Source: Acidobacteriota bacterium
GTDB lineage: Bacteria; Acidobacteriota; Vicinamibacteria; Vicinamibacterales; Vicinamibacteraceae
Assembly: GCA_013695405.1 (NCBI GenBank)
Contig: JACDAO010000551.1
Location: 1-10,163, forward strand
DNA length: 10,163 bases
Direction of reading: 5' to 3'
The notes beneath the pieces are model-generated. The model did no database searches. It was not told the DNA's origin and saw only the letters and a program-made list of their open reading frames with translations. Positions 15 through 8,174 of this stretch are shown piece by piece (positions within the stretch are counted from its first letter, which is position 1; the number at the start of each line of letters is the position of its first letter). Made by a program: the position numbers and the translations under genes.

Positions 15-38
15 GTAGGCGCCGGACTTGTCCGGCGC
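15..38 (+). repeat. REP-like palindromic repeat, copy 1 (3' of hisS)
   Basis: An inverted repeat with arms GGCGCCGGAC and GTCCGGCGC around a TT centre, preceded by a GTAG foot at 15-18 whose last G is the first arm base. The 24 bp are identical to the minus-strand copy at 4750-4773 and differ by one central base from the copy at 8139-8162. Flanking GAGGT (12-16) and ACCTC (42-46) could extend the stem across a small internal loop. It sits about 30 bp past the hisS stop; read in the hisS direction the hairpin is followed by a pyrimidine-rich run (CTACCTCTTCCTT), so it could also act in 3'-end formation. The repetition is seen directly; the REP assignment rests on the GTAG-plus-palindrome architecture and is inference. 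Confidence 0.75.
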
Positions 39-66
39 ACGACCTCGGGGGCTCGCGACCCGGGGA

Positions 67-1503
67 TCACGACGCCCCGGCTCGCCAGAGACTCGGGTCG
101 AGCAAGTCGCGGAGCCGGGCGGCAGCCTCGACGCGCGGCAGCCGTTGCTGCGCACCACTGCGGAGGTCCTTGACGGCAATCTCCCCCGCCGCGCGCTCGT
201 CGTCGCCCTCGATCACGACCAGCGGCACGCCGGTCGAGGCGGCGTACTTGAACTGTTTGCCGAGCTTGTCGGCGTCCGGATACACCTCGACCCGCAGGTC
301 GCCGGCGCGCAGCGCGTGCGCCAGCACCACCGCGTCGCCGGCGCGGGCCGCCGACCACTGTGCCACCAGCACGTCAGCGCCACCGCGTGCGACGTGCGCA
401 GGAAACATCTCCCGCTCGGTCATCACGACCAGGATGCGTTCCAGGCCTAGCGAAAAGCCGGCCGCCGGCACCTGCTGACCCAGGAACATCCCGACCAGCC
501 GATCGTACCGTCCGCCGCCACCGAGACTGCCGACCAGATCGGGCACGGCCATCTCCATGATGCAGCCGGTGTAATACGACAGTCCACGGGCCAGACTCAG
601 ATCGATCCGCAGATGCGCGGAGGCCGGCGTACCCGCGGCGAGCTCGAGCACCCGACGCAGCGTCCCGATGCCGTCCAGCGCGGCGGCATGACTGGCGACG
701 AAGGCCGTGACCCGGTCCAGCACGGCAGCGTTGTGCGACTGGTGGCGCTGCGGATCGGCCGGCCAGTCCGCCTCCGCTGCCTCCGCGGACCGCACCGTCG
801 GCGCCGCCGCGCCGGTGCCTCCATGCGCCAGGATCTCGAGCACGGCCTCCGCCGCGGTCGCGCGCAACCCGCGCTGCTCGTATTCGGCGCGCACCCCGGC
901 AACACCGATCTTGTCCAGCTTGTCCAAGGCCACCAGCGCGTCGCCGTGGCTGGCCGTGGGCACGCCGGCGGTGTCGAGCACACCGCCGAGGATCGCACGG
1001 TGATTCAGGCGCAGCACGACGTCGGCGAAGCCCAGCGCCTGCACCGCCTCGCAGGCGGCCGCGCACAATTCAGTCTCGACGACCGGCGAGGTCGAGCCGA
1101 TCGCGTCGACGTCGCATTGATAGAACTCGCGAAACCGCCCGCGGGCCGGACGATCGGCCCGCCACACCGGCTGGATCTGGTAGCGCTTGAAGAACTTCGG
1201 CAGGGTGGCGCGATGTTCGGCGACAACCCGCGACAGCGGCACGGTCAGGTCGTAGCGCAATGCCAGGTCGGCCAGACCGGACGCTTCATGCTCGCCGCGC
1301 TTGAGGATCTTGAAGATCAGCTGGTTGCCTTCGTCGCCGTACTTGCCCAGCAGCGTCTCGATGTTCTCGACCGCTGGCGTTTCGAGCGGCTCGAAGCCGT
1401 ATTTCTCGTAGACGCCGCGGATCACGGCGATCACGTGCGAGCGGCGACGCACGTCGGCGGGCAGGAAGTCCCGCATGCCGCGGGCGGGAGCTGAGGACGC
1501 CAT
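67..1503 (-). CDS. hisS: Histidyl-tRNA synthetase (class II), eukaryote-like subtype
   Basis: Charges tRNA-His with histidine using ATP; a cytosolic class II synthetase. The 478-residue product opens with the typical GMRDFLP (about 9-15). Motif 2 is at about 109-133 (QIQPVWRADRP, then RGRFREFYQCDVD), the histidine-binding signature LARGLSYYTG at about 304-313, the glycine-rich GGGGRYD at 328-334, and motif 3 AAGFSLGLERI at about 347-357. The C-terminal anticodon-binding domain covers about 376-470, with the usual DKLGKQFKYA at 411-420. RFREFYQCDVD in motif 2 is the form I associate with eukaryotic and some bacterial (for example Bacteroidetes) enzymes, rather than the shorter E. coli-type RYRQFHQ form. 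The ATG at 1503 follows the upstream gene's stop by 13 bp with no clear Shine-Dalgarno, which suggests translational coupling. Complete at both ends. Confidence 0.97.
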   Translation of the reverse strand: MASSAPARGMRDFLPADVRRRSHVIAVIRGVYEKYGFEPLETPAVENIETLLGKYGDEGNQLIFKILKRGEHEASGLADLALRYDLTVPLSRVVAEHRATLPKFFKRYQIQPVWRADRPARGRFREFYQCDVDAIGSTSPVVETELCAAACEAVQALGFADVVLRLNHRAILGGVLDTAGVPTASHGDALVALDKLDKIGVAGVRAEYEQRGLRATAAEAVLEILAHGGTGAAAPTVRSAEAAEADWPADPQRHQSHNAAVLDRVTAFVASHAAALDGIGTLRRVLELAAGTPASAHLRIDLSLARGLSYYTGCIMEMAVPDLVGSLGGGGRYDRLVGMFLGQQVPAAGFSLGLERILVVMTEREMFPAHVARGGADVLVAQWSAARAGDAVVLAHALRAGDLRVEVYPDADKLGKQFKYAASTGVPLVVIEGDDERAAGEIAVKDLRSGAQQRLPRVEAAARLRDLLDPSLWRAGAS

Positions 1504-1516
1504 GGCGCTGGCGCGG

Positions 1517-2038
1517 CTAACCGCGCGCCTCGCCTTCCATGTAGTCGAGCCGGTAGCCGACGTACCGGGCGGCGTAGTCGAGAATCGACGCCACTTCGTC
1601 GTCGCGCAGCACCCGGCGCACCGTGCCCGGGCTGCCCATCACCAGCGACCGTGCCGGCACCACCTGATCCTCGGTGACCAGCGTGCCGGCCGCGACGATC
1701 GAGTCCGGGCCGACCACCGCCCCGTTGAGGACGATCGCGCCCATCCCGATCAGGCAGCGGTCTTCGATGGTGCAGCCGTGGACAATGGCGCCGTGCCCGA
1801 CCGTCACCTGGTCGCCAATCGAAGTCGGGTGGGTGCCGCGCATGACGTGGACGATCGTCCCGTCCTGCAGGTTGGTCTGCGCGCCGATCCGGATGCGGTG
1901 CACGTCGCCTCGAACCACGCACTGCATCCAGATACTGGACTCCGCGCCAATCGTGACGTCACCGATGACCTGGGCACTCTGGTCGACGAAGACGGAGGGG
2001 TCGAGCTGTGGCCACTGGCCGCGGTACGGGCGAAGCAT
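1517..2038 (-). CDS. Gamma-carbonic-anhydrase-family protein (left-handed beta-helix)
   Basis: A 173-residue protein of the gamma-carbonic anhydrase / YrdA / PaaY group. Hexapeptide-type beta-helix repeats run from about 18 to 135 (for example VIGDVTIGAESSIW, then IGAQTNLQDGTIVHV), followed by a C-terminal helix. The three zinc-binding histidines are present at H64, H82 and H87 (TIVHV and VGHGAIVHG), as are the conserved R43 and D45 (VVRGDV) and N56, Q58 and D59 (NLQDG). The proton-shuttle glutamate loop of the archaeal Cam enzyme is not evident, so CO2 hydration activity is uncertain; many relatives are uncharacterised. I chose the ATG at 2038 because MLRPYRGQWPQL is a usual family start and CCGAGG lies just upstream. 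An in-frame ATG at 2092 would add 18 unconserved residues and has no ribosome site. It lies 13 bp upstream of hisS and is probably co-transcribed. Confidence 0.88.
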   Translation of the reverse strand: MLRPYRGQWPQLDPSVFVDQSAQVIGDVTIGAESSIWMQCVVRGDVHRIRIGAQTNLQDGTIVHVMRGTHPTSIGDQVTVGHGAIVHGCTIEDRCLIGMGAIVLNGAVVGPDSIVAAGTLVTEDQVVPARSLVMGSPGTVRRVLRDDEVASILDYAARYVGYRLDYMEGEARG

Positions 2039-7074: not shown

Positions 7075-7085
7075 GTTCGACTCCC

Positions 7086-8123
7086 ATGCCTGCTCAAATC
7101 TTCTACGACACGGACGCCGACCTCTCCCTCATCCAGGCGCGCACGGTGGCCATCATCGGCTACGGCTCGCAGGGACACGCCCACGCCCTGAACCTCAAGG
7201 ACAGCGGCGTCGACGTGCGCATCGGCCTGCGCGCCGGCAGCGTCTCGGCGGCCAAGGCCGAGGCCACCGGGCTGCGCGTGGTCAGCGTCGCCGAGGCGGC
7301 CCGCGAAGCCGACGTGATCATGCTGCTCGCGCCCGACACGGTGCAGCCGTCGCTGTACGAGAACGACGTCCAGCCGCACCTGACCGCCGGCAAGATGCTG
7401 ATGTTCGCGCACGGCTTCAACATCCGCTACGGGACGATCGTGCCGCCGGCCGACGTCGACGTGACGATGGTGGCGCCCAAGTCGCCGGGCCACCGCGTCC
7501 GCGAGGTCTTCGAGGAAGGCGGCGGTGTGCCCGGCCTGGTGGCGGTTCATCAGGATGCGACCGGCCACGCCCGCGCGCTCACCATGTCGTATGCCCGAGG
7601 CATCGGCGTCACCCGCGCCGGCGTGATCGAGACGACCTTCACCGAGGAAACCGAGACTGACCTGTTCGGCGAGCAGGCCGTGCTCTGCGGCGGTACCGCC
7701 GAACTCGTGAAGGCCGGTTTCGAGACCCTCGTCGAGGCTGGCTACCAGCCCGAGATCGCCTATTTCGAGTGCCTGCACGAGCTCAAACTGATTGTCGACC
7801 TGATGTACCGGGGCGGCCTCAACTACATGCGCTACTCGGTCAGCGACACGGCCGAGGCCGGTGACTACACCGCCGGCCCGCGCATCATCACCGCCGAGAC
7901 CCGCAAGGCGATGAAGCAATTGCTGGCCGAGATCCAAGACGGCACCTTCGCCCGCAACTGGATCGAGGAGAACCAGAAGGGGCGACCATGGTTCAACAAG
8001 GTTCGCGCCGACGAACAAACCCAGACGCTCGAGGAAGTCGGCGCCAAGCTGCGCGCGATGATGCCGTTCCTCAATCCCGTGACCCACAAGCCGCAGGAAC
8101 AGAACGCGCCGGTCCGGGCGTAG
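7086..8123 (+). CDS. ilvC: Ketol-acid reductoisomerase (class I)
   Basis: Isomerises and reduces acetolactate or acetohydroxybutyrate, using Mg2+ and NADPH, to the substrate of IlvD. The 345 residues match the short class I form. The Rossmann motif [13 protein letters not shown] (25-37) is followed by a cofactor loop [12 protein letters not shown] (47-58) whose two serines, S52 and S54, fit the usual NADPH-phosphate-binding pattern. H109 (FAHGFNI) is the conserved active-site histidine. Metal and substrate residues are D192 and E196 (TDLFGEQ), E228 and E232 ([10 protein letters not shown]), and S253 (SVSDTAE). The tail after ~330 (Gln/Pro/Ala-rich) is short and unconserved. The ATG follows the ilvN stop by 11 bp without an obvious ribosome site. 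No leu gene follows, so this looks like the end of the biosynthetic operon. Confidence 0.97.
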
Positions 8124-8126
8124 ACA

Positions 8127-8174
8127 CAGACTGCAACCGTAGGCGCCGGACGTGTCCGGCGCCGATGTTGTCTG
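8127..8174 (+). terminator. Extended stem-loop after ilvC, possible terminator
   Basis: Outside copy 3, CAGAC (8127-8131) can pair with GTCTG (8170-8174) and AAC (8135-8137) with GTT (8167-8169), making a longer interrupted stem capped by the 10-bp repeat hairpin. There is no clear run of T after it, so a classical intrinsic terminator is not proven. Its position at the end of the amino-acid operon and before a functionally unrelated gene makes transcript-end formation or mRNA protection plausible. Confidence 0.35.
8139..8162 (+). repeat. REP-like palindromic repeat, copy 3 (3' of ilvC)
   Basis: GTAG foot (8139-8142), arms GGCGCCGGAC and GTCCGGCGCC, with a GT centre in place of TT; one further matching base at 8163 completes a 10-bp perfect stem (8142-8163). 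It lies 15 bp past the ilvC stop. It is oriented with the GTAG foot facing ilvC, opposite to how copies 1 and 2 sit relative to their upstream genes. Confidence 0.75.

What the first reader, a model, noticed from the sequence alone, without database searches (positions are those of the whole stretch)
15..8162. Three copies of a 24-bp GTAG-footed palindrome in 8 kb: a candidate REP family
15-38 and the minus strand of 4750-4773 are identical over 24 bp, and 8139-8162 differs at one central base. All have the same asymmetric GTAG foot next to a 9-10 bp perfect stem. That architecture matches REP elements mobilised by RAYT (TnpA-REP) Y1 transposases. Three near-identical copies beside three different genes imply a genome-wide, recently active or conserved family. 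No RAYT gene is in this window.
Basis: partly seen in the sequence, partly recalled or inferred. Interest (0 to 1): 0.7.

Follow-up and report, generated by a model that had tools for sequence, protein, structure and literature searches.

The report
GTAG REP hairpin family in an acidobacterium
The three short hairpin repeats are members of a family of well over a hundred nearly identical copies scattered mostly behind genes in this bacterium's genome, of a kind known elsewhere as REP elements; the transposase that normally copies such elements was found in sister species but not in this genome's draft assembly.

Summary
In detail: identical 24-mers at 15-38(+) and 4750-4773(-), one loop change at 8139-8162(+), 0 expected. 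They belong to a genome-wide GTAG-tagged REP family: 123 copies within 3 mismatches, 147 by a degenerate pattern, reversed-pattern controls 0. Among 27 copies too far from the query 24-mer to have been retrieved by it, every foot is exact GTAG and 25 have perfectly paired outer stems. Copies sit mainly behind genes and are rare in divergent gaps. Inverted neighbours always differ in stem (25 of 25). Among 60 relatives the family occurs in one genus only, very probably Luteitalea (Acidobacteriota). The four congeners lack it at the three window sites, and some carry other GTAG palindromes there. REP-associated tyrosine transposases (RAYTs) lie in 3 of 4 congeners; 6 of 8 Y1 loci examined are flanked by sister GTAG families. 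No RAYT was found in this 94.7% complete draft genome, and none of the eight is flanked by this subfamily. So: a new REP family of a known kind; mobilisation by a RAYT is inferred, and the cognate enzyme is missing.

The parts
15..38 (+). REP copy 1, GTAG + GCGCCGGAC/TT/GTCCGGCGC, 28 bp beyond the 3' end of hisS, 14 bp from the contig end
4750..4773 (-). REP copy 2, same 24-mer, inside the last codons of ilvD (12 nt of the ORF follow it); the four congeners lack it at this junction
8139..8162 (+). REP copy 3, one loop change (TT to GT), 15 bp after the ilvC stop codon; congeners lack it, G004 and G001 have other GTAG palindromes in the same gap
67..1503 (-). hisS, histidine--tRNA ligase; copy 1 lies behind its 3' end
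   Evidence: TIGR00442 above its cut-off
3049..4785 (+). ilvD, dihydroxy-acid dehydratase; its C-terminal tail is partly REP-encoded
   Evidence: TIGR00110 residues 20-557 of 578
7086..8123 (+). ilvC, ketol-acid reductoisomerase; copy 3 lies behind its 3' end
   Evidence: TIGR00465

Best explanation
The three palindromes are members of a GTAG-tagged REP (repetitive extragenic palindrome) family, seemingly genus-specific. Each is a single-stranded hairpin with an unpaired GTAG foot, alone or in inverted pairs with unlike arms (REPIN or BIME type). By analogy with E. coli and Stenotrophomonas, a Y1 HUH transposase (RAYT/TnpA-REP) recognises the hairpin and foot on single-stranded DNA, cuts at a nearby dinucleotide such as CT and copies or moves the element in trans. 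Insertions survive mainly behind genes and in some protein linkers. The cognate RAYT is probably in an unassembled gap, recently lost, or a diverged relative of the type-1 RAYT of congeners. Shown here: the family, its structure, its distribution and its absence at orthologous sites. Inferred: the enzyme and the movement.
For: 123 copies within 3 mismatches and 147 by degenerate pattern, reversed controls 0 in this genome. Of 256 possible 4-base feet before a perfect palindrome in 218 kb of this genome (contigs chosen because they carry copies), GTAG is first with 49, next 6. 102 core sites: 98 have exact GTAG, 87 of those 98 have perfectly paired outer four bases against a shuffled mean of 18.3 and maximum 31. 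Because that DNA was fetched with GTAG patterns, keeps only cores more than 3 mismatches from the 24-mer: 31 cores, 27 with exact GTAG, 25 of the 27 perfectly paired; the other 4 are unrelated sequences. 56 of 57 copies with up to 4 mismatches to one of six forms have 2 or fewer, and the control has none up to 4: a young or homogenised family. Orthologous sites in four congeners lack it and several hold other GTAG palindromes. RAYTs matching NCBIfam NF047646 and Pfam PF01797 occur in 3 of 4 congeners; 6 of 8 Y1 loci are flanked within 400 bp by GTAG palindromes of sister families. Sister families B and C share the foot and outer stem forms and differ mainly in the pairs next to the loop.
Against: No RAYT or other Y1 transposase in this genome by four searches (PF01797, E<=1; a type-1 RAYT protein, E<=10; RAYT profile A1, E<=10; NF047646, E<=10, whose control is weak: over its cut-off in 1 of 14 genomes). 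None of the 8 Y1 loci examined is flanked by this subfamily. No precise insertion boundary was read, because the congeners are only about 75-88% identical in the long matched stretches. No movement was observed.
Confidence: 0.85

Rival explanations
1. Host-maintained 3'-end elements: the hairpins are kept by selection as transcription end signals or mRNA 3' stabilisers, and their uniformity reflects function, not movement.
For: 48 of 54 copies lie outside called ORFs although 91.4% of the 218 kb is coding; density 9.85 per kb in convergent, 3.05 in same-direction, 0.17 in divergent gaps; 20 of 28 copies in same-direction gaps share the gene strand. One of the three window copies scores as terminator-like.
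Against: Orthologous genes of congeners do without it or have other GTAG palindromes; copies also lie in frame inside pheT and an Lhr-type helicase; terminator-like sites in the window are at shuffle level (4 against a mean of 2.8); a function at 3' ends does not by itself explain one invariant foot and unlike arms in inverted pairs. The 3' bias is also what purging of harmful insertions would leave.
Confidence: 0.12
2. The family is moved in trans by a RAYT of another subfamily (type 1, flanked in congeners by the sister families with GACCT or AGC next to the loop), so no dedicated enzyme ever existed.
For: Families A, B and C share the foot and outer stem forms; type-1 RAYTs in G001, G002 and G004 are flanked by B or C palindromes.
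Against: This genome has no RAYT of either type in its assembly yet 147 copies, while G004 has a type-1 RAYT without inner stops and only 14 copies.
Confidence: 0.25
3. Classical MITE of a DDE transposon, or chance GC-rich palindromes.
For: Short inverted repeats in many copies.
Against: The foot is on one side only and exactly GTAG; flanking columns carry no signal above 0.5 bit but a C before the foot; shuffles and reversed controls give none. Target-site duplications were not tested.
Confidence: 0.02

Closest known systems
GTAG REP super-family (24 families, Di Nocera et al. 2013, PMC3733652; abstract, sections 5, 14, 15 and passages seen)
   Same: Unpaired GTAG directly before a short perfect stem, loop often 2-3 nt, subfamilies with alternative complementary stem bases, head-to-head dimers often unlike, placement near 3' ends and between convergent or same-direction genes, TAG of the foot serving as stop codon, some copies in frame inside genes
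   Different: Stem and loop sequence (mostly SCGYCGGAC or CGGYCGGAC with TT centre) and host; in the held main text the word Acidobacteria occurs once, for TIR-flanked transposases, not for GTAG REPs (its Figure 1 was not seen)
Short perfect-palindrome REPs of group 3 TnpA-REP, e.g. Stenotrophomonas REPtron Sm (Corneloup et al. 2021, PMC8266576; passages seen)
   Same: GTAG foot directly on a short perfect hairpin with a tiny loop
   Different: There the enzyme is in the genome and was shown to cut; here no enzyme was found in the genome
REPIN/BIME of E. coli and Pseudomonas
   Same: Inverted REP pairs a few bases apart, spread between genes
   Different: Here the two arms are never the same stem (25 of 25), and 38 of 63 clusters are single copies
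REP-associated tyrosine transposases (NCBIfam NF047646)
   Same: Present in congeners with HxH, WQ, an Arg ten residues on and Tyr invariant in five sequences, next to sister GTAG palindromes
   Different: None detected in this genome

Membership tests
GTAG-tagged REP | Asymmetric GTAG foot next to a short palindrome | tested here: met
   98 of 102 core sites have exact GTAG, the other four are unrelated; 27 of 27 family copies not retrievable by the query
GTAG-tagged REP | High copy number, dispersed | tested here: met
   123 within 3 mismatches, 147 by degenerate pattern, control 0
GTAG-tagged REP | Stem kept by compensatory change | tested here: met
   87 of 98 perfect outer pairing, shuffled mean 18.3; 25 of 27 in the set not retrievable by the query
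GTAG-tagged REP | Extragenic, near 3' ends | tested here: met
   48 of 54 outside ORFs; convergent 9.85 per kb, divergent 0.17 (contigs chosen for carrying copies, ORFs from my own caller)
RAYT-mobilised REP (REPtron) | RAYT gene in the same genome | tested here: not met
   0 hits in G000 by PF01797, type-1 RAYT, profile A1, NF047646; the assembly is 94.7% complete in 831 contigs, so absence is not proven
RAYT-mobilised REP (REPtron) | RAYT flanked by the same REP | tested here: not met
   8 Y1 loci in G001, G002 and G004: 6 flanked by sister families, none by this one
RAYT-mobilised REP (REPtron) | Cleavage by the enzyme in vitro | not testable with these tools
   needs purified protein
REPIN/BIME | Two REPs in inverted orientation with a short spacer | tested here: met
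   20 head-to-head and 5 tail-to-tail neighbours among 101 copies; 38 of 63 clusters are singletons, so met for a part of the family

The most novel reading that the evidence does not exclude
A population of well over a hundred near-identical REPs, with an intact foot and almost no decayed copies in the sample, persists in a genome that really has no RAYT or other Y1 transposase. Copying or homogenising would then need another enzyme or host repair and gene conversion, and the rule that inverted neighbours never share a stem would be part of how such a population survives (long perfect hairpins being removed).
Probability: 0.12. Interest if true: 0.6.

Novelty: new member of a known kind. Interest (0 to 1): 0.4.

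Why it matters
It puts a GTAG REP family, and several sister families with their RAYTs, into what is very probably an acidobacterial genus; the paper passages seen here report only TIR-flanked or atypical relatives of RAYT in that phylum. The genus is a natural series: same foot, same outer stems, but the pairs next to the loop change from species to species while the RAYTs differ, so the REP-RAYT recognition code can be tested directly. A large uniform family without a detectable RAYT in the same genome is a test case for how long REPs outlive their enzyme.

Tried and rejected
Chance palindromes: rejected by shuffles and reversed controls. An Rfam RNA family: no hit in the window at gathering threshold. 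Intrinsic terminators: window count at shuffle level. A dedicated RAYT flanked by this subfamily: looked for in the five genomes of the genus by family, protein, profile and neighbourhood; none. Exact insertion boundaries from congeners: the alignments at ilvD, ilvC, hisS and in the pheT linker are too diverged to fix them. A wider range: an exact scan of GTDB contigs found 22 stretches. 10 bear titles of the Ga0077522 MAG, which is G004 (same 14,899-base contig and match position); 5 are of one MAG titled Deltaproteobacteria, a related set with 3 of 5 perfectly paired; 7 are single copies in seven other records, none with a perfect 9-bp stem (five with one mispair, two not recognised as palindromes). 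That scan returned no record titled Luteitalea although G001 and G002 have exact matches, and by its own note may leave out records near the window, so it is not complete.

Weak points of my own counts: contigs L031-L050 were chosen because they carry copies, so absolute densities are inflated (the comparison between gap types is less affected); the loci were fetched with GTAG patterns, hence the check; ORFs were called by my own codon-bias script trained on six window genes; the 101-copy set required near-complementary outer stems, so it was not used for covariation. The probability 0.007 for unlike inverted neighbours ignores relatedness of clusters. In one search the contig-end count used 67 listed copies whose contig length I had, not all copies. 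The reversed control was 0 in G000 but 1 in each of three other genomes (G003, G027, G049).
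Full report
OBSERVATION. The three sites are as described. Each is GTAG followed at once by a 9-bp palindrome with a 2-nt centre; single-stranded DNA folding of the 15-38 sequence and of two stem variants gives 8 bp and a CTTG loop, z -4.8 to -5.2. The genes are hisS, a gamma-carbonic-anhydrase-like gene, prephenate dehydratase, ilvD, ilvB, ilvN, ilvC and a peptidase-like gene (the second and last from matches below the family cut-offs). Copy 2 lies inside the end of the ilvD frame; the ilvD family match ends at residue 557 of 578 and the REP encodes residues 568-575, so it lies in an extra tail of the protein.

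GENOME-WIDE FAMILY. The window's assembly G000 (3.86 Mb, 831 contigs, 94.7% complete) holds 123 copies within 3 mismatches and 147 of the pattern GTAGNCGNCGGACTTGTCCGNCGN with at most one mismatch; the pattern read backwards gives 0 in G000. Most two-mismatch copies in the part of the list shown are compensatory stem changes. In the fetched DNA I then collected cores CGGACnnGTCCG without asking for foot or outer stem: 102 sites, 98 with exact GTAG, the other four unrelated. Of the 98, 87 pair perfectly over the outer four bases; dealing partners anew gives 18.3 on average, 31 at most in 1000. Because that DNA had been fetched with GTAG patterns, I repeated the count on the DNA fetched after and kept only cores more than 3 mismatches from the 24-mer, which it could not have retrieved: 31 cores, 27 with exact GTAG, 25 of these perfectly paired, and 4 unrelated sequences. 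Of all 256 possible feet before a perfect palindrome (stem 9 or more, loop 2-5) in 218 kb, GTAG has 49 and the next 6. Copies within 0, 1, 2, 3, 4 mismatches of one of six forms: 41, 11, 4, 0, 1, control 0 in all five classes; at 5 mismatches 3 against 2. There is no clear tail of decayed copies.

PLACEMENT. In the 20 contigs plus window, 91.4% of bases are called coding but 48 of 54 copies are outside ORFs. Density per kb of gap: convergent 9.85 (17 copies), same direction 3.05 (28), divergent 0.17 (1). In same-direction gaps 20 of 28 share the gene strand. In the larger set of 101 copies (own loci, partly chosen by copies): 45 in same-direction gaps, 29 convergent, 4 divergent, 16 inside called ORFs, 7 at edges; the median distance is 37.5 to gene 3' ends and 96 to 5' ends, and 5 distances of -4 fit the foot giving a TAG stop. 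A minority is in frame inside real genes: an Lhr-type helicase, pheT, a PSD1/PSCyt2 protein and an ABC transporter. The PheT and Lhr linkers are variable in the five genomes; congener PheTs lack the REP, and the Lhr linker of G004 carries GTAG palindromes of its own, one of this subfamily.

PAIRS. Among 101 copies, 63 clusters: 38 single, 15 of two, 7 of three, 3 of four. Neighbours within 100 bp: 20 head-to-head, 5 tail-to-tail, 13 tandem. Inverted neighbours differ in their six outer stem bases in 25 of 25; tandem neighbours differ in 3 of 13; random drawing of stems gives all 25 different with probability about 0.007. In 400 kb each of G001 and G002 inverted neighbours also always differ, 8 of 8 and 6 of 6. 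Preference for unlike dimers is known in many GTAG families (PMC3733652, section 14 read), where protection from enzymes that remove long hairpins is suggested as a reason; I adopt this as inference.

RELATIVES. With the degenerate pattern, 5 of 60 genomes searched (own genome included) have the family, all of one genus: G000 147, G001 39, G004 14, G003 7, G002 3. A looser pattern with free bases next to the loop gives 127, 175, 13, 5 and 113 in G000, G001, G004, G003 and G002, and 0-3 per genome elsewhere among 149 genomes; of the 31 distinct outside sequences listed, none is perfectly paired. The three pairs next to the loop differ by species: GAC here; AGC, ACC and GAC in G001; CCC, GCC, GGC and ACC in G002. 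G001 has 7,480,314 bases in one contig, which fits Luteitalea pratensis (7.48 Mb in PMC8841776, passages); that G002 is Luteitalea sp. TBR-22 is recalled. The genus name is therefore very probable, not proven. In a 393-kb sample of G003 (no RAYT found) GTAG hardly stands out, 9 against 8 for the next foot.

EMPTY SITES. At the hisS 3' end, ilvD/ilvB and ilvC/peptidase junctions the four congeners lack this palindrome. In the ilvC gap G004 has GTAGGGCCCGTTCTCCGAACGGGCC and G001 another GTAG palindrome; behind hisS G002 and G004 have other ones, read by eye from the alignment and some with one mispair. So several gaps are hit by different GTAG families in different species.

THE ENZYME. Y1 transposases (PF01797, E<=1) occur in 41 of 60 genomes searched but not in G000 or G003. 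RAYT-specific queries agree: present in G001, G002, G004; none in G000 at E<=10; in G003 only two weak hits in long frames (E 0.016 and 0.51) with the single protein, none with the profile. Of four RAYTs scanned, all match NF047646, two above and two below its cut-off. Five aligned RAYTs keep HxH, WQ, an Arg ten residues after the Trp, and Tyr; W94, Q95 and R104 are conserved in the subclasses with typical REPs in PMC6006769 (passages). Of 8 Y1 loci examined (7 found by the RAYT profile, one by PF01797 only; two broken), 6 have GTAG palindromes within 400 bp, of sister families; two have none. No locus has the GAC type. Missing from the assembly is plausible: 7 of 67 listed copies with known contig length lie within 100 bp of a contig end against 2.2 expected. 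Loss is also plausible: E. coli genomes, with or without RAYT, hold at least 69 REPINs (PMC8049555, figure legend passage), though RAYT-bearing strains had on average ten times more REPs in PMC2817692 (passage).

KNOWN OR NEW. The element meets the definition of GTAG REPs. I found no report of this family: no held paper has both 'Luteitalea' and 'RAYT' or 'Luteitalea' and 'repetitive extragenic palindrom'; 8 papers hold 'Acidobacteri' and 'repetitive extragenic palindrom', of which I looked into three (PMC12306157, PMC3733652, PMC6006769) and saw no such family in the passages; 48 hold 'Acidobacteri' and a word starting 'rayt', 10 listed. Subscription papers, figures and supplements were not seen. 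PMC12306157 counts REP candidates in three Acidobacteriota by a general tool (passage). Verdict: new member of a known kind, with an open question about the enzyme.

Noticed in passing
L110:4443-5249 (G001): A tandem array of fifteen nearly identical GTAG palindromes every 54-56 bp next to a RAYT gene in G001: local amplification beside the enzyme.
   Followed up: no
L144, L146, L150, L157, L162: A MAG titled Deltaproteobacteria (JAADHO) has five GTAG palindromes (three perfectly paired) with the same GGAC-TT-GTCC core and unlike flanks, perhaps a convergent or transferred small REP family.
   Followed up: partly
L112:4497-4916 and L111:4614-4867 (G001): Two Y1 genes (one with an inner stop) without any GTAG palindrome within 400 bp; possibly the TIR-flanked type described for Acidobacteria.
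   Followed up: partly
window 4786-4812 and congeners: The ilvD/ilvB junction carries degenerate tandem repeats like CCCTGAGCC and CTGCAGCCTG in several congeners.
   Followed up: no
L313, L317: The linker of an Lhr-type helicase carries in-frame GTAG REPs of different subfamilies in two species, a possible insertion hot spot.
   Followed up: partly
L013:1472-1579: Three copies in frame inside a long repeat-rich ORF that looks like a TPR/FG-GAP protein by eye; not scanned against Pfam because one search failed on it.
   Followed up: no
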